IMG/VR virus record: IMGVR_UViG_3300050821_006870
Span: 1-39,545 of that record
DNA length: 39,545 nucleotides
Reading direction: 5' to 3' (one strand)
DNA from: a virus
Positions 4,421 to 34,064 of this stretch are shown in pieces (the first letter of the stretch is position 1; each line of letters begins with the position of its first letter). Position numbers and translations under genes: made by a program. The notes beneath the pieces were generated by a model, which was not told the origin of the DNA, searched no databases, and saw only the letters and a list, made by a program, of their open reading frames with translations.

Positions 4421-4820
4421 ACTTATCTCCGGTGCCAGCGCCGCCACCGCCGCCAGTGCTTCCGTCGCCTTGCTGCTGGCCCATCTGAACGCAATTGAGT
4501 ATGAGCAGGATGTTGCGATAGCCAGGATTCTCGATCGCCTGAATGATGAACACATCGTTCGTGTCAGTTTGAACTCGCTGGTCGGAATAGATGCCCGGTT
4601 GCCAGCGCATAGTGACTCTTACAAACAGCGTGGTCGTTGCCTGCCCGCCGCTGATGACGTCCTTGCCGCTCACCGGCTCGATCTCTGCCCACGTAGTCAG
4701 GAACGGCACATAGGTCGTCCTCATTCCCGAGGCATCCACGATTTCGTTCTCAGCCAAGATCGTGACCCGGTGCACCATCTTGCCGGGATCGATCTGTGGC
4801 CAGATCACGCGGGTGCTCAT
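4413..4820 (-). CDS. Head closure / head-tail joining protein (135 aa)
   Basis: A phage head-tail adaptor of the SPP1 gp16 / Phage_H_T_join kind, which closes the portal channel. The start is ATG 4820, which overlaps the connector stop as ATGA. The beta-rich core reads MVHRVTILAENEIVDASGM, then TWAEIEPVSGKDVISGGQ, then FVRVTMRWQPGIYSDQRV and VFIIQAIENPG, a pattern typical of the family. The C-terminus is a Gly/Gln-rich tail, longer than usual. It sits between the gp6-like connector and the gp10-like protein, exactly as in HK97-type phages. Confidence 0.85.
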   Translation of the reverse strand: MSTRVIWPQIDPGKMVHRVTILAENEIVDASGMRTTYVPFLTTWAEIEPVSGKDVISGGQATTTLFVRVTMRWQPGIYSDQRVQTDTNDVFIIQAIENPGYRNILLILNCVQMGQQQGDGSTGGGGGAGTGDKCA

Positions 4821-5545
4821 CGCGCTCTCACCATCGACCCATACGACAGGCACGAGGACACCGCATACGGATACTCTGCCGCCGCGCTAAGACCTTTCTC
4901 GAACGGCATGCGGTTGTTGTACCAAGCGGAGATCAGCAGCTTCATTCCGTTCTTGATCCGCTGTCCCGATCCGTACCACCACGGATGGGTCGCGGGATAT
5001 CCGCTGGTGAAGCGCAGCAGGATCGCGCTGCTCGGCTGTGGCGTGAAGGTTGGCCACGTGCCGTTGTAAGGCGGATAGATGATCCCCGGCTCCTTGGCGT
5101 TGTCGATCATGTAGTCGGTAAGGGGATTCAGCACGATCAGGTTGCCGTCGCTGTTCGTGTACTGCACCAGATCCACCGTTTGCAGCGGTGCGCGGGTTTC
5201 GATGCGATAGGACGTCCAGTAGTCGAAGCTCAGGTCCCATTGCTTCTGGACGATGTCGCGTCCCTGAAGAATCTCCGCTTGCTCTCGCGCCGCGCTGATC
5301 AGCGAGCCGAGGAACAGGTCTTCATCGGTGTCGGCTGGCAAGCGTTCGGGGATCTTGAGATACGACCGGATTTCTTTCACCGTGCACGGCTCCACCAGAG
5401 ACTGCGGCGGCGACGATTCGGTGAGGCGCAGCGTGCCGTATGGCGACAGGATGCCGTAGTACGCACCCCAGTAGGTGCCATATTGCCCATAGGAATAGGC
5501 GAACTGATTCAGCCCTGCGCCACCGATCAGATAGGAGCCGCTCAT
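4817..5545 (-). CDS. Head-tail connector, HK97 gp6-like (242 aa)
   Basis: The protein should form the ring under the portal. I place the start at ATG 5545, which overlaps the glycosyltransferase stop as ATGA. The first 45 residues are Gly/Tyr-rich (SYGQYGTYWGAYYG), an extension unusual for this family. The gp6-like part begins at about residue 54 with the typical CTVKEIRSYLKIPERLPADTDE and LFLGSLISAAREQAEILQGR. The end has LLRFTSGYP, then IKNGMKLLISAWYNNRMPFEKG, also characteristic. It is the first core virion gene after the sugar cassette. Confidence 0.85.
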   Translation of the reverse strand: MSGSYLIGGAGLNQFAYSYGQYGTYWGAYYGILSPYGTLRLTESSPPQSLVEPCTVKEIRSYLKIPERLPADTDEDLFLGSLISAAREQAEILQGRDIVQKQWDLSFDYWTSYRIETRAPLQTVDLVQYTNSDGNLIVLNPLTDYMIDNAKEPGIIYPPYNGTWPTFTPQPSSAILLRFTSGYPATHPWWYGSGQRIKNGMKLLISAWYNNRMPFEKGLSAAAEYPYAVSSCLSYGSMVRAR

Positions 5546-8717: not shown

Positions 8718-9914
8718 CTACGCTGGCGATGCGCCCGCGAAGCTGCCAGTGACATACGAGGCAGGACGTTTCACAAGGAGCACAAGCCGTTTCTCAGCGC
8801 GGATCGCGACCATGTTCTGCACGAAGTAAGTGCTGTGCTCAGTCGAGATTTCAACCTGCATTTCCATTCGGTCTCTGATCTCCGCAGCGATGGGGCTGCC
8901 CGAGCCGACGAGGAATTGGTTGAACGACATTGACGTGGTGTAGACCACATCGAGTCCGAACAGCGATGGGCGCACATTCGTCTGGGGATCGCCCAGAATA
9001 TATCTGCCAAAAGAATCTTTGAGCAGACGCATGTTCCACCAGTTGTTCGGGTGCAGGATGACGAAGGTTGGATCGAGTTCCTTCGCGGCGGTGATCTGCT
9101 CGATGGCGCGTCCAACATAGTCGATGCTATTGGACGGGCCGACTAGCAGGCTGCCCTGAAACGGTGTCGCCTGCGGGATTAATCCGTGCAGGTTTTCGCC
9201 GGTTCCGTCACCGCTCAATAGCTGAAGCTCTTCCCCCAGATTCACGTAGTACGGCATCGATGAATTGATAAACGACATCAACTCCTGCATGTCATCGATG
9301 ATCTGGCGGGTCGCCGGAATCCACGTTGCCAGCAGCCGAACCTTCTCAGAGATCGAGTTGAAGTTCAGCTGGTTCTCCGGCTTGGTCGATGCCTCTGGGA
9401 CCGGACTGCCGACCGTCAAAGGCTGGCTGACACGAACGAAATCGACAACCTGCATCGTGGTCGGAGACGCGCTGAGAAGATCGCGAATCTTCAGCTGCTG
9501 CCGCGCTTCAACCGTGATGCCGGGAATGCGATCGATCTGCAGGACACCGGTTGTCGCTGTGCCGACTGTGCCTGCGGTGATCGTGGTTTTGCGACCGAGG
9601 AACCTCTGCATCGCATTGTCTTTGAACTGAAGCACCGCGCTGCCGCGCTTCTCTTTCATCAGGCGCGTGAGGCTTTCTGACTGCTTCACCACCTGCTCGA
9701 TGCCATCGTCCGCAGTCTGGTCCTCGTTCGAGAATCGCTTCGCAAGCCGAATATCGATCGCATCCACCTGCGTTTGCAGATTGGTCATTTTGGTCACGGT
9801 GTCTTCGAGGATGGTGCCGTGCCTCTTCTGCTGCTCCTCGCCGAGTTTGTACTGCTCCGCGAGCAGCTCCTTGAGTTCCTTCAGTTGCTTCTCGAGATTG
9901 CTGTTGTCTTCCAT
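8718..9914 (-). CDS. Major capsid protein, HK97 fold (398 aa)
   Basis: This is the main head subunit. Residues 1-80 form a charged coiled coil (NLEKQLKELKELLAEQYKLG...) that corresponds to the scaffolding delta-domain cleaved by the S78 protease in HK97-type phages. The HK97-fold part follows, with VGSPVPEASTKPENQLNF, the typical EKVRLLATWIPATRQIIDD, ELQLLSGDGTGENLHGLIPQ, and a VEISTEHSTYFVQNMVAIRAEKRL ending. I choose ATG 9914, with AAGGA 11 bases upstream. A GTG at 9941 in frame would add nine residues. Delta-domain cleavage probably occurs near residues 80-95, but the exact site cannot be read. Confidence 0.95.
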   Translation of the reverse strand: MEDNSNLEKQLKELKELLAEQYKLGEEQQKRHGTILEDTVTKMTNLQTQVDAIDIRLAKRFSNEDQTADDGIEQVVKQSESLTRLMKEKRGSAVLQFKDNAMQRFLGRKTTITAGTVGTATTGVLQIDRIPGITVEARQQLKIRDLLSASPTTMQVVDFVRVSQPLTVGSPVPEASTKPENQLNFNSISEKVRLLATWIPATRQIIDDMQELMSFINSSMPYYVNLGEELQLLSGDGTGENLHGLIPQATPFQGSLLVGPSNSIDYVGRAIEQITAAKELDPTFVILHPNNWWNMRLLKDSFGRYILGDPQTNVRPSLFGLDVVYTTSMSFNQFLVGSGSPIAAEIRDRMEMQVEISTEHSTYFVQNMVAIRAEKRLVLLVKRPASYVTGSFAGASPA

Positions 9915-9975
9915 TGCGACACTGATCCTTCTGAACGCCACTCGGCGTCCGGTTGCACTTACAAAGTGGAACTGC

Positions 9976-15440: not shown

Positions 15441-16679
15441 TCACGCCGCCACCGGCTTCCGGTTGTCGGCTATCTCGCCAAAACTGCGCCCGTCTCTGTC
15501 CAGCGCGGCTTGCTTCCCGGCAAAGTTCTGCCAGCGGTGCACAATCACGTCGCAGTAGATCGGATCGATCTCGACCAGCCGTGCGTTGCGCGATGACTTC
15601 TCGCAGGCGATCAAGGTCGACCCTGCGCCGCCGAATAGATCGAGGACCACGTCGCCGCGCTTGCTGCTGTTGGCGATCGCCCGGTCGATCAACTCCACCG
15701 GCTTCATGGTCGGGTGCAACCGGCTCGCCGATGGTTTCTTTTCCTGCCACAGCGTCGATTGCGATTTGTCGCCATACCACGGATCGCTCTGCCCTTTGCG
15801 ATGGCAGTAGAAGATCGGCTCGTGCTGAAACTTGTATCGTCCGAATCCCCACGCGAAGGTGTTCTTCGCCCAGATGATCTGGCAGCGAACTTCGAAGTCC
15901 GCGCTCTCGAGTGAGTCTTCGAACTCGCGCTGCCACGATGAGGGATGGCAAACGTAGAGGGAGGCACCATCCTTCAGGCCGCGCTTGCCGGTCACAAACG
16001 CCGCGACCAGAAACGATTTGAACTGCTCCCGCGTCATGCGGTCGCCTTGGATGGTCAGCTTCTCTTCTGTGTAGCCTTCGTAATCGACGTTGTATGGCGG
16101 ATCGGTGAACGCCATATCCGCCAACTCGCCGCGAGCCAGCAGCTGCTCGACGACCACGTTCCCTTTGGTGCTGTCGCCGCAGAGCAGCCGGTGCGGACCG
16201 AGCAGCCACAGATCCCCGGGCTGCGTAACCGCGATATCAGGCGACGCTGGCACCTCGTCTTCATCGGTCAGCCCTGCGCTCTTGTCGACGAGGAATTGGG
16301 AGAGTTCGTCTTCATCGAAACCGGTGAGCGACAGGTCGAGATTCAATCCCTTGAGATCGAATAGCTCTGCGGTGAGCAGTTCGTAATCCCACGCCGTCTC
16401 ATCGTGGCTGCGGTTATCCATCAGCCGGTACTGGCGCACCTGCTCGGGCGTGAGTTCGGTCGCGACGTGGACCGGCACCTCGACGAGACCAAGCTTCTTC
16501 GCGGCAAGCAGACGCGCATGGCCTGCGATGATCACGTCTTCGACGTCGACCACGATCGGTTGACGCCAGCCGAACTCGCGCAGCGACGTCGCAACCTTCG
16601 CGATCGCCTCGTCGGTGATCTTGCGTGCGTTGCGCGGATACGGTTTTGGCCGTTCAATCGGCCACGGTTGAACTTGCAT
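15441..16679 (-). CDS. ParB-domain / DNA (adenine or cytosine-N4) methyltransferase fusion (412 aa)
   Basis: Residues 1-115 form a ParB/sulfiredoxin-like domain (PYPRNARKITDEAIAKVA..., VDVEDVIIAGHARLLAAKKLG). Residues 150-400 form a beta-class N6/N4 methyltransferase with catalytic DPPY at 193-196 (MAFTDPPYNVDYEG), the typical HPTMKPVELI segment and the SAM-binding FGGAGST at 349-355. Motif order IV before I marks the beta group. Such fusions are common next to phage terminases and may protect phage DNA or modify packaging sites. It lies between HNH/spacer and the terminase genes on the same strand. Recognition sequence unknown. Confidence 0.94.
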   Translation of the reverse strand: MQVQPWPIERPKPYPRNARKITDEAIAKVATSLREFGWRQPIVVDVEDVIIAGHARLLAAKKLGLVEVPVHVATELTPEQVRQYRLMDNRSHDETAWDYELLTAELFDLKGLNLDLSLTGFDEDELSQFLVDKSAGLTDEDEVPASPDIAVTQPGDLWLLGPHRLLCGDSTKGNVVVEQLLARGELADMAFTDPPYNVDYEGYTEEKLTIQGDRMTREQFKSFLVAAFVTGKRGLKDGASLYVCHPSSWQREFEDSLESADFEVRCQIIWAKNTFAWGFGRYKFQHEPIFYCHRKGQSDPWYGDKSQSTLWQEKKPSASRLHPTMKPVELIDRAIANSSKRGDVVLDLFGGAGSTLIACEKSSRNARLVEIDPIYCDVIVHRWQNFAGKQAALDRDGRSFGEIADNRKPVAA

Positions 16680-28213: not shown

Positions 28214-28287
28214 AACAAAGCGTGGGGCATTGCAACACCGGTGACCCATCAACCTCAAACCGACGACGAACCGAAAGGACAAAGGCA

Positions 28288-29085
28288 ATGCAAAAGAAAG
28301 AATCAACCTCTAACCCTGAGATTCACATCGAGCCAGTCAAAACCGGGATAGTACATGTCTGCATAGTTGGTCGCAGTCCGCTGATCTGTAACCGGATGAG
28401 TGAAAAAGCTATGCGTACACTGTTACTCCCCGGCGGGAAAATGAATGCTGCGCAGAAAGCGGTGAACTTAAAACACGATCCACTAAAGGAGTTTCGTGAC
28501 AGCGTATACACGAATCCGGAGCAAGGATCGACTCGCATACAGGGTCTGAATTCCTTTTTCAAGAAGGGCATGATGACGGCGGCGGTCGACATACCGCACG
28601 CGAAGAAAGCACAGATCGGGCGACTAGTTTATCTGCCAGAAGATCGCGTCGACATTTACGGCGTGCCAAAGCTGATGATGTCGGTTACACGCAGTTCAGA
28701 TCAGAACCACACTCCAGACGTTCGCACGCGTGCCATTTTGCCTCGGTGGGCAGGTCGCTTTCCCATCCACTATCGAATTCCTTTTTTCAACGACACAACG
28801 ATAGTCAATCTGTTGGCGTCGGCAGGCGTCACGGCAGGCGCGGGCGATTGGAGGATTGAGAAGGGCGGAAGTTACGGTCGCTATGAACTTGTCAATGATG
28901 ACGACGCGGAATTCCTCTCGCTTCTCGAAGAAGGGCGCGAAGCACAAGATCTGGCGCTTGCGAATCCTGTGGCATATAACGACGAAACACAAAGCCTCCT
29001 CGAGTGGTTCGCAATCGAACTTGACCGTCGCGGTAAGGATCAGGAGCAACGCGACAAGAAGAAGGAGTTGCGTCGTGCTGCTTAA
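28288..29085 (+). CDS. Conserved unknown phage protein (265 aa)
   Basis: ATG 28288 with AAAGGACAAAGG before it; an in-frame ATG at 28222 is less likely. The core runs HVCIVGRSPLICNRMSEKAM, DPLKEFRDSVY, then FKKGMMTAAVDIPHAKK and TIVNLLASAGVTAGAGDWR, with ending KGGSYGRYELVNDDD. I recall this combination from a common phage protein that often precedes a 150-170 aa partner, as it does here (overlap 11 bp). It has no named function. It might be a nucleic-acid binding protein; that is speculation. Confidence 0.78.
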   Translation: MQKKESTSNPEIHIEPVKTGIVHVCIVGRSPLICNRMSEKAMRTLLLPGGKMNAAQKAVNLKHDPLKEFRDSVYTNPEQGSTRIQGLNSFFKKGMMTAAVDIPHAKKAQIGRLVYLPEDRVDIYGVPKLMMSVTRSSDQNHTPDVRTRAILPRWAGRFPIHYRIPFFNDTTIVNLLASAGVTAGAGDWRIEKGGSYGRYELVNDDDAEFLSLLEEGREAQDLALANPVAYNDETQSLLEWFAIELDRRGKDQEQRDKKKELRRAA

Positions 29086-29569
29086 TACCGAAACCAGACA
29101 GCTGCTAGAAGAAGAGTTGGACCGGCTCGCTAAGAAAGGAGCCGGTACTCTCACTCCGGTGAGCGTAGTAGACGCGGCGCGTTCACCGGAAAGCCCACTC
29201 CATAGATACTTCGAGTGGAATGATTCGCTTGCCGCTATAGCTCATCGCTTGGATCAGGCGCGTGTGTTGATTCGCAGCGTGCGTGTATCTGTAACCGTGG
29301 AAGAGAAGATTCTGGTTGTTCCGCGTTACGTTCACAACCCAAGTGTAGAAGAGGGTGAATCGGGTTACTGTGCTCTGCTCACCATCGACGACAACCAGCA
29401 AAAGCGGAATGTTATTTCAAGCGAACTGGCGACCGGCATGGCGCATCTGCGACGTGCTGGCAACATCGCATTGGCCATCGATAACTCACAGTTACATGAC
29501 CAGCTATTGCGGGACATTTCTCGAATTGAGAAATATCTCAAACGAATGTCGGGAAGCGAGGAAGAGTAA
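29075..29569 (+). CDS. Conserved unknown phage protein (164 aa)
   Basis: GTG 29075 with a strong AAGGAG at seven bases, overlapping the upstream gene. The segment LTPVSVVDAARSPESPLHRY, then FEWNDSLAAIAHRLDQARVLI and IRSVRVSV closely matches a conserved phage family (LTPEAVVxAAxDPxSPLHxxFEWDD...YRLDQARxLI). The C-terminus is helical and probably interacts with other proteins. It directly precedes the pentamer array, which starts six bases after its stop. Confidence 0.82.
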   Translation: MLLNTETRQLLEEELDRLAKKGAGTLTPVSVVDAARSPESPLHRYFEWNDSLAAIAHRLDQARVLIRSVRVSVTVEEKILVVPRYVHNPSVEEGESGYCALLTIDDNQQKRNVISSELATGMAHLRRAGNIALAIDNSQLHDQLLRDISRIEKYLKRMSGSEEE

Positions 29570-29574
29570 AACGC

Positions 29575-30251
29575 GGCAGGCAGTGCTTGTTGAGGCGGGG
29601 CGAGGTCTGGAGCGAGTGGTTAGGCGGGGCGTGGCAGGCATGGCTTGGATAGGTTCGGTGGGGCGAGGTTTGTTGAGATCCGGCTCGGCGGTGCATGGCA
29701 GGCGAGGTATGGCGTTGAAGTGGCGACGCATGGCAGGGCACGGTGAGATCAGGTCAGGCGAGGCAGGCAAGGCGAGGCACATCTTGGCGGGGCCGCGTTA
29801 GTTATGGTTTGGCGGGGTGAGGCATGGCAGGCGAGGTTAGGTGAGCAGAGTCAAGGCGGCGTCTGGTGTGGCTTGGCTGGGTACGGTGTGGCACGGCGGG
29901 GCGAGATTAGGTTAGGCGCGGCAGGCGAGGCTTGGCAAGATGACGCGGGGCGTGGTCGGGGTTAGGTCTGCTAACGGCGAGGCAGGCGTGGTGAGGCGCG
30001 GAGAGGTTGTGCTTGGTTGGGCCGCGCAGTGTTGGGCAAGGCAGGCTTGGCGGGGTCCGGTTTCTTTCCGGCAGGGCACGGTCGGGCCACGTTTGTTCGG
30101 GCAGGGCGTGGTTTGGCAGGCAAGGCAGGCACGGCGAGGAAAGGTCAGGTCAGATCTGATGCGGCACTGTCTGGTATGGCATGGCAGGCATGGTCCGGTT
30201 TGTTCCGGTAAAGCACGTTATGGTCGGGCGAGGTCTGGCGAGGCGAGGTGC
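29575..30251 (+). repeat. G-rich degenerate pentanucleotide array (GGYNN)n, about 680 bp
   Basis: The whole gap between the genes ending at 29569 and starting at 30281 is a degenerate tandem array of five-base units, best written GGYNN, with G-runs on the plus (coding) strand. The GG doublets fall in strict 5-nt register over long runs: for example at 29637-29686 (ten units, eight with GG) and 30128-30187 (twelve units, nine with GG). They also do so from 30222 to the end. Where GG is lost to GA, CG or TG, the 5-base phase is kept. The phase slips only at four-base GGCA steps. It ends 29 bp before the next gene start. No CDS is supported inside; open frames there are Arg/Gly/Ala/Trp-rich artefacts. 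Confidence 0.93.
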
Positions 30252-32582: not shown

Positions 32583-34064
32583 ATGAAATCTAAATTCAAG
32601 TATCTCTTCCTCTTCGTGCTGCTAACCACCATCTGCATGGCGTTCGTTCTCTGGCTGATCTATCACCACGGGAAGCCAGCGGATATCACAGCGGACTTCG
32701 GCGATCGCACCAGCACCATCACCATTCCTCCCGACTTCTTCGGGACAGGCGGCGTGGGAAGCACGGTCTCTTCGCAGACAGGCATCGACAACATGACGAA
32801 TGTGCGCTTGCTCGGGAACAGAATCTGGATCAACGTCAACACCATTTTCCCGACCGGAGATGTGAACGCGCCGAGCTGGAGCGCATGGGATAACCAGCTG
32901 AAACGGGGCACGCAAAACGGCCTTGATCCGCTCATCACCGTTTGGGGCACACCGGCACCGACGCTGGGCGTGCAAGCCTGCTCCATGCCTACGGACGTGA
33001 ACAAGTGGGCAAAGCTGGCAGCCGCCGCCATCAAGCACACCGACGCGATTAAGCCCGGCCTATGGTACGAACTCTGGAACGAACCGGATACCGGATCGCT
33101 GTGCAACAGCACGAACTATCTGAACGACTACCTGCGGCTGTACGGAGCGCTCGGGCCGCTGTTCCGCGCCGCGTCCCCCACCGGCAAATTCGGAGGTCCA
33201 GCACTGGCAAGCTCGGCCAACACGACCAGCTGGATCGGGGCACTGACTACCAACGCCAGCACCGCTCCTTATGTCGAGTTCACGTCCCTGCACATCTACA
33301 TCACCGGCAGCTGGCTTCTCCCGAACATGACATGGCAGCAGGCTTACGACACCACCCAGAATCCCACCGCAGGGCTGGCCTATTACTACCGGCTGTTTGA
33401 ACAGACCACCCACAAAGGCACGCAGCCGAATGCCGCGACGACGCCGACCGTGATCAGCGAGTACAACACGAACTATGTTTACAGCCCGAATAACGTTCAA
33501 AACGATGCGATCTATGGGCCGCTTTGGAACACGGTGGCAGTCGCCGATTTTCTCAACAATGGACCGCAGGGATCGGTTCCACCGGCAAAGATCATTCACT
33601 TCATGAGCGGGGATAGCAAAGGCTACTTCTGTCTGGAGGGAGTGGCGAACGGCGATCTCAAGGCGTGCAAGCAGCCCACGGACGGGCAACCTTACAACGC
33701 CGTCTATGTGCCTTATCCAACGCTGCTGGCATACCAGTTATTCTGTGATCCAACCTACCTGAACATGGAGAACGGATTCAGCGTTGTGAACCCACCGGCA
33801 GCGCCGAATAGCCTGCTCACCACAGCTTTCTACACTGCGAAGGCGAACTCGGTCGTCATCATCAATCCCACGGCGACGGCTGTTAGCGGGCTGCGGGTGA
33901 AGCTATCGCATCTGGGTATCCATCCGACCTACGGAGACCAGAGCGTTCTCAGCAACGGCACCCTCGTGAAGAGTGATCTCAAAGTTTCATCCGGCAACAG
34001 CGTGACACTGACAACCGATGTGCCTGCGTATTCAACGGTGGCACTTACCGTGGGGCAGTCGTAG
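32583..34064 (+). CDS. Membrane-anchored glycoside hydrolase, clan GH-A/GH39-like (493 aa)
   Basis: The N-terminus has one hydrophobic segment (about residues 7-26, YLFLFVLLTTICMAFVLWLI) acting as signal-anchor; the enzyme should face outward. The catalytic barrel contains the acid/base Glu167 in WYELWNEPD and the nucleophile Glu293 in VISEYNTNY, 126 residues apart, as in clan A retaining enzymes. A C-terminal beta domain (about 410-493) follows, typical of GH39/GH51. The substrate is probably a plant or microbial polysaccharide; unproven. AAGGA site at ten bases. It lacks phage-structural context and ends in a terminator, as expected of a cargo gene (auxiliary metabolic gene). Confidence 0.9.
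   Translation: MKSKFKYLFLFVLLTTICMAFVLWLIYHHGKPADITADFGDRTSTITIPPDFFGTGGVGSTVSSQTGIDNMTNVRLLGNRIWINVNTIFPTGDVNAPSWSAWDNQLKRGTQNGLDPLITVWGTPAPTLGVQACSMPTDVNKWAKLAAAAIKHTDAIKPGLWYELWNEPDTGSLCNSTNYLNDYLRLYGALGPLFRAASPTGKFGGPALASSANTTSWIGALTTNASTAPYVEFTSLHIYITGSWLLPNMTWQQAYDTTQNPTAGLAYYYRLFEQTTHKGTQPNAATTPTVISEYNTNYVYSPNNVQNDAIYGPLWNTVAVADFLNNGPQGSVPPAKIIHFMSGDSKGYFCLEGVANGDLKACKQPTDGQPYNAVYVPYPTLLAYQLFCDPTYLNMENGFSVVNPPAAPNSLLTTAFYTAKANSVVIINPTATAVSGLRVKLSHLGIHPTYGDQSVLSNGTLVKSDLKVSSGNSVTLTTDVPAYSTVALTVGQS

What the first reader, a model, noticed from the sequence alone, without database searches (positions are those of the whole stretch)
29575..30251. 680-bp G-rich pentanucleotide array filling the only large gap in a replication-gene operon
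In a genome where neighbouring genes usually overlap, 711 bp without a gene is exceptional. It is filled by degenerate units GGYNN in near-perfect 5-nt register: GG starts at 30222, 30227, 30232, 30237, 30242 and 30247, and twelve in-phase units lie between 30128 and 30187. The phase survives even where GG is mutated, and shifts only through four-base GGCA steps. That suggests selection on spacing. Two-G runs with 3-nt loops form a continuous series of potential two-layer G-quadruplexes, and a G-rich nontemplate strand favours R-loops. Possible roles are replication priming or origin, recombination hotspot, RNA decoy or packaging signal. No known feature class explains it.
Basis: partly seen in the sequence, partly recalled or inferred. 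Interest (0 to 1): 0.88.

Follow-up and report, generated by a model that had tools for sequence, protein, structure and literature searches.

The report
Phage VIPR guide-RNA array (RNA-guided interference)
The odd G-rich five-base array is almost certainly the guide-RNA array of a VIPR system, a recently described CRISPR-like machine that phages use against rival phages, and two of its guides read out as pieces of a rival's capsid gene.

Summary
In detail: 29575-30249 is a genuine 5-nt array (lag-5 autocorrelation 11 s.d. above shuffles). It is not a G-quadruplex, origin or decoy element. It is the vrRNA array of a VIPR locus, a class described in an April 2026 preprint (PMC13142463). The gene at 28288-29085 encodes the Vipr protein: its family profile hits the solved SUSP1 Vipr chain (E=1.2e-12), and its AlphaFold2 model has a Csm3/Cas7 RAMP fold. 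The gene at 29081-29569 is a putative vap. In 159 of 169 loci with a vipr homolog, a same-strand GGYNN array lies within 1.8 kb, against 2 on the opposite strand. The 'four-base GGCA steps' are boundaries between about ten guides, most of roughly 9-13 pentamers. Decoded by the published 1-nt-skip rule, guides g3 and g4 spell motifs of the HK97 major capsid protein, in frame, with the skipped base at the codon wobble position. The window's own capsid gene is their best in-window match, but with 3-4 mismatched dinucleotides. This suggests guides aimed at a related competitor that spare self. New member of a known kind. Conserved GGCA delimiters, capsid targets and guides aimed at rivals' vipr genes are the useful additions. 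No expression or interference was tested.

The parts
28288..29085 (+). vipr gene (RAMP/Cas7-like protein, 265 aa; start inferred, the ORF opens at 28222); phrog_4652
   Evidence: family profile hits SUSP1 Vipr (PDB 36pp) E=1.2e-12; AF2 pLDDT 91; fold matches are Csm3/Cas7 RAMPs
29081..29569 (+). putative vap (vipr-accessory) gene, 162 aa, phrog_15946; function unknown
   Evidence: homolog accompanies vipr in most loci; confident AF2 model, no PDB fold match
29575..30249 (+). vrRNA array: about 10 guides of GGYNN pentamers separated by 4-nt GGCA register breaks
29579..29632 (+). guide g1 (irregular)
   Evidence: parse
29637..29696 (+). guide g2; 1-nt-skip decode I-F-Y-S-G-D-F-D-P-S-G-I (resembles a DUF2399 motif; lead only)
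29701..29761 (+). guide g3; decodes to a C-terminal major-capsid motif (own MCP EMQVEISTEHST, 8/11 dinucleotides)
29766..29825 (+). guide g4; decodes to capsid motif KDT(L/F)GRYI(F/L)GD (10/12 in capsid genes of four contigs, 8/12 in own MCP)
29830..29919 (+). guide g5 (18 pentamers; perhaps two guides with a lost boundary)
29924..29980 (+). guide g6 (with internal register breaks)
29985..30039 (+). guide g7
30044..30114 (+). guide g8 (with internal register break)
30128..30182 (+). guide g9 (preceded by one stray pentamer between two GGCA breaks)
30187..30249 (+). guide g10 (last in the array)
8718..9941 (-). own major capsid gene, containing the partly matching counterparts of the g3 and g4 targets (about 8864 and 9020 downwards)

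Best explanation
The array is the guide-RNA (vrRNA) array of a phage-encoded VIPR system. It is transcribed on the G-rich strand, in the direction of vipr and vap. Several Vipr (RAMP) subunits would coat each vrRNA, holding every GGY and displaying every NN dinucleotide. The RNP pairs with double-stranded DNA non-contiguously, two bases read and one skipped, and blocks transcription of the target. The GGCA register breaks would separate about ten guides. At least two guides (g3, g4) read as the major capsid gene of a related competitor, at sites where the phage's own gene differs by 3-4 dinucleotides. Shown here: array anatomy, vipr homology and fold, strand-specific linkage, and guide-to-capsid correspondence under the 1-nt-skip code. 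Inferred from the published SUSP1 system: transcription, RNP formation, repression. Inferred here: guide boundaries at GGCA and self-sparing.
For: Array statistics. Profile of the protein family hits SUSP1 Vipr, PDB 36pp (E=1.2e-12). The AF2 model (pLDDT 91) has Csm3/Cas7-type RAMPs as its top matches (Foldseek E to 1.4e-5; VIA Z 9.9 over 157 residues, rmsd 4.1). In 169 loci with the gene, 159 have a same-strand array within 1.8 kb against 2 on the opposite strand, and the array's place relative to vipr and vap is permuted while its strand is not. Delimiter spacing peaks at 10-11 pentamers, inside the 9-16 range of PMC13142463. Over 618 guides and 2.65 Mb of sequence, the 1-nt-skip rule gives 14 guides/40 sites; other skips give 3-6 guides, reversed guides 5, five shuffles 0-8. 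g3 and g4 beat all 200 shuffled guides on the own capsid gene, both on the sense strand, in frame, with the skipped base at wobble; other skip rules reach only 6 anywhere in the window. g4 matches 10/12 in capsid genes of four contigs.
Against: No RNA or functional data. The single window protein does not reach the PDB Vipr chain by phmmer; only the family profile does. No full 12/12 target was found, and about eight guides have no convincing target. The four contigs matching g4 carry near-identical sites, so they are about one independent hit. No structured 3' tail, promoter or terminator was seen in the array, unlike the SUSP1 vrRNAs. Some guides are irregular.
Confidence: 0.95

Rival explanations
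1. G-quadruplex or R-loop element for replication priming or as origin.
For: GG runs every 5 nt on the coding strand; the array lies in a replication-type operon.
Against: In relatives the array travels with vipr/vap into non-replication places, such as Gordonia phage ODay between the tail assembly chaperone and tape measure genes. Some vipr loci use GTCNN or GTTNN units that lack GG runs in most units (L144, L126). NN positions decode to protein motifs.
Confidence: 0.02
2. Annealing or recombination substrate for a phage single-strand annealing protein encoded by the neighbouring gene.
For: Some annealing proteins bind a few nucleotides per subunit (own knowledge); the gene was unannotated.
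Against: The neighbouring protein is a RAMP by fold and a SUSP1 Vipr relative by sequence profile; guides match capsid and vipr genes by the gapped code.
Confidence: 0.01
3. A degraded, inactive VIPR array: ancestry right, function lost.
For: About a quarter of the pentamers lack GG and some guides carry extra register breaks.
Against: The vipr frame is intact and the family's invariant residues are kept; register and delimiters persist; g3/g4 still decode cleanly. Related arrays show similar degeneracy.
Confidence: 0.06

Closest known systems
VIPR of Escherichia phage SUSP1 / Pseudomonas fulva prophage (PMC13142463; PDB 36pp)
   Same: Small RAMP protein with detectable profile homology, one small accessory gene, GGY/NN tandem repeats, 1-nt-skip decoding into coding sequence with the skip at wobble, phage-borne.
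   Different: The array here is one continuous block of about ten guides split by 4-nt GGCA breaks, without the structured 3' tails of SUSP1 vrRNAs. It may match the preprint's 'staggered arrays' (its fig. S18 could not be read). Capsid genes are the best-supported targets rather than a satellite or lysogeny regulators.
Class 1 CRISPR Cas7/Csm3 backbone
   Same: Fold of the protein; periodic guide contact in principle.
   Different: No CRISPR repeats or spacers, no other cas genes seen; 5-nt rather than 6-nt period; non-contiguous pairing.
Cheoctovirus (cluster F) mycobacteriophage locus (Saal, Philus, Brocalys)
   Same: Same vipr, vap and array module with the same GGCA breaks, present but unremarked in their annotations.
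   Different: Order is array-vipr-vap, beside the immunity region.

Membership tests
VIPR | Vipr protein: minimal RAMP homologous to described Viprs | tested here: met
   Family profile against PDB SUSP1 Vipr E=1.2e-12; Csm3/Cas7 fold
VIPR | Adjacent RNA-coding tract of about 9-16 GGY/NN (YNNGG) repeats per guide | tested here: met
VIPR | Small vap gene beside vipr | tested here: met
   phrog_15946 homolog next to vipr in most loci; assignment to a named vap class not possible
VIPR | Targets follow the 1-nt-skip rule | tested here: met
   Family-wide scan; g3/g4 against capsid genes. No perfect full-length target for the window's guides was accepted
VIPR | vrRNAs expressed and bound by Vipr; repression of targets | not testable with these tools
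   Needs RNA-seq, pull-down, reporter
VIPR | Conserved structured 3' tail on each vrRNA (SUSP1 clade) | tested here: inconclusive
   The array is continuous; no terminator-like or Rfam match. Other VIPR types may lack it
CRISPR-Cas class 1 | CRISPR repeat-spacer array with multi-subunit cas operon | tested here: not met
   No CRISPR-like repeat-spacer array found at the locus; neighbours are not cas genes

The most novel reading that the evidence does not exclude
The GGCA register break is a conserved boundary or processing element of tail-less VIPR arrays, kept even where the repeat unit has drifted to GTCNN or GTTNN. These arrays are also tuned to discriminate near relatives: guides aim at conserved motifs of a competitor's capsid or vipr gene exactly where the carrier's own gene differs by one to several dinucleotides, giving allele-specific exclusion.
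Probability: 0.45. Interest if true: 0.65.

Novelty: new member of a known kind. Interest (0 to 1): 0.58.

Why it matters
It shows that a feature which looks inexplicable in raw sequence is a readable guide array. It extends VIPR to an uncharacterised siphovirus-like phage outside the tested examples and names probable targets that can be tested directly. It also gives internal punctuation (GGCA) for parsing hundreds of unannotated arrays, including those in well-known mycobacteriophages, and suggests how carriers avoid self-targeting.

Tried and rejected
Rfam: no match. TRF: array not seen. PADLOC, NCBIfam, Pfam: no family for vipr or vap. vap fold search: nothing significant. Collection scans for exact gapped cores: g2 in viral contigs gave only 8-9/12 chance-like hits. 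g2 in genomes gave one DUF2399 gene at 10/12, about 0.5 hits being expected by chance; kept as a lead only. g10: no hit. g9: 11/11 in one capsid gene (L186), but chosen from 17 core hits and in an apparently unrelated virus, so a lead only. g7: 38 core hits, none extending by two or more dinucleotides. Plain-protein search of viral contigs with the window protein found nothing; sub-family alignments were needed. Loci without an obvious array: L144, L126 and probably L149 carry variant-consensus arrays; L038, L097, L132 and L065 end shortly after vipr; L021, L122 and L153 remain unexplained.

Full report
Observation. The intergenic stretch after the ORF ending at 29569 is a true pentanucleotide array. 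Lag-5 identity is 0.49 against 0.31 +/- 0.016 in dinucleotide-preserving shuffles, with harmonics. A Viterbi parse gives 122 pentamers (89 GGY), score 249 against a shuffle maximum of 42.

Linkage. A blastn search with the array hit only cluster F mycobacteriophages. A separate tblastn search with the upstream protein (28222-29085, phrog_4652) hit the gene directly beside that same mycobacteriophage array. Further homologs in Gordonia phages and in Sulfitobacter, Paracoccus and Rhodoplanes plasmids all carry a G-rich array beside the gene, together with a second small gene of family phrog_15946, which in the window is 29081-29569. I then fetched 160 more loci from viral contigs. Of 169 loci, 159 have a same-strand array within 1.8 kb of the gene; 2 have one on the opposite strand; 6 of 159 have one further away on the same strand. 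Order is variable: gene-array-accessory 68, gene-accessory-array 60, array-gene-accessory 19. Strand is constant, as expected if the RNA matters.

Protein. AlphaFold2 gives a confident model (pLDDT 91). Foldseek's best matches are Csm3/Cas7-type CRISPR RAMPs (E down to 1.4e-5), and VIA-align gives Z 9.9 over 157 residues (rmsd 4.1) to Csm3. A profile of the 90-sequence alignment finds PDB chain 36pp_D, 'SUSP1 Vipr protein', at E=1.2e-12. The window protein alone does not.

Literature. PMC13142463 (bioRxiv 2026.04.26.720920) describes VIPR: a minimal phage RAMP (Vipr), accessory vap genes, and vrRNAs of 9-16 alternating GGY/NN repeats. The NN dinucleotides pair with DNA while one target base is skipped between them, and targets lie in competing mobile elements. 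The array, vipr homology, accessory gene and phage setting match, so the window holds a VIPR locus.

Guide anatomy. Across about 270 arrays the commonest register breaks are GGCA before GG (614), GGCG before GT (374) and GGC before GG (133). Spacing between breaks peaks at 10-11 pentamers, which fits one guide per interval. In the window this gives about ten guides. In L144 and L126 the unit has become GTCNN or GTTNN, yet the break still reads GGCA. That the breaks are guide ends is my inference.

Code test. I extracted 618 guides and scanned 2.65 Mb of fetched sequence (both strands counted) outside arrays. With one skipped base, 14 guides hit 40 sites; 0, 2 or 3 skipped bases gave 3, 3 and 6 guides, reversed guides 5, and five shuffles 0-8. 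Four guides hit vipr genes of other phages. L124 decodes as EDMVRVGM, L048 as YGTFAVAG, and L096 approximates the glycine-rich EKKGDFGTF motif. These three carriers' own vipr genes match less well: 5/8, 7/8 and 7/10. These cases were selected as hits, so the self-mismatch is suggestive rather than proven.

Window targets. Guide g4 matches 10 of 12 dinucleotides in major capsid genes of L193, L197, L199 and L200 (near-identical sites; PF05065 confirmed on L193 and L200), at motif KDTLGRYILGNP. Its best match in the whole window is the same motif of the phage's own capsid gene (KDSFGRYILGDP, 8/12). Guide g3's best match is a second site of the same gene (EMQVEISTEHST, 8 of 11 scored; its irregular third unit was left out of the count). 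Both are sense strand, in frame, with the skip at wobble, and neither is reached by any of 200 shuffled guides on that gene. Other skip rules reach only 6 anywhere in the window. The simplest reading is that g3 and g4 target the homologous capsid gene of a related competitor.

Limits. Transcription, processing, RNP formation and interference are inferred from the published system. The VIPR type and vap class could not be assigned because supplements were not readable. The accessory protein has no recognisable fold match.

Noticed in passing
L144 about 5195-5430; L126 about 4580-4770 and 5255-5430: vipr loci whose arrays use GTCNN or GTTNN instead of GGYNN units but keep GGCA as the break.
   Followed up: partly
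L006 (Gordonia phage ODay) 3817-6772: A VIPR module with HTH genes sits between the tail assembly chaperone and tape measure genes, a place that suggests recent insertion as a unit.
   Followed up: no
L002 4970-5215, L003, L009: Cluster F mycobacteriophages carry an unannotated VIPR locus beside the immunity region; in Philus (L003) gene 52 is called as starting inside the array.
   Followed up: partly
window 29637-29696: Guide g2 decodes to IFYSGDFDPSGI, resembling a motif in a DUF2399 protein; possibly a guide against such a gene, not significant here.
   Followed up: partly
window 15441-16679 (-): ParB-like/DNA methyltransferase fusion (phrog_498).
   Followed up: no
window 32583-34064 (+): 493-aa protein with a membrane-anchor-like N terminus, possibly a glycoside hydrolase (by eye); unusual next to early genes.
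   Followed up: no
L021, L122, L153: vipr homologs with no array recognised nearby; reason unknown.
   Followed up: partly
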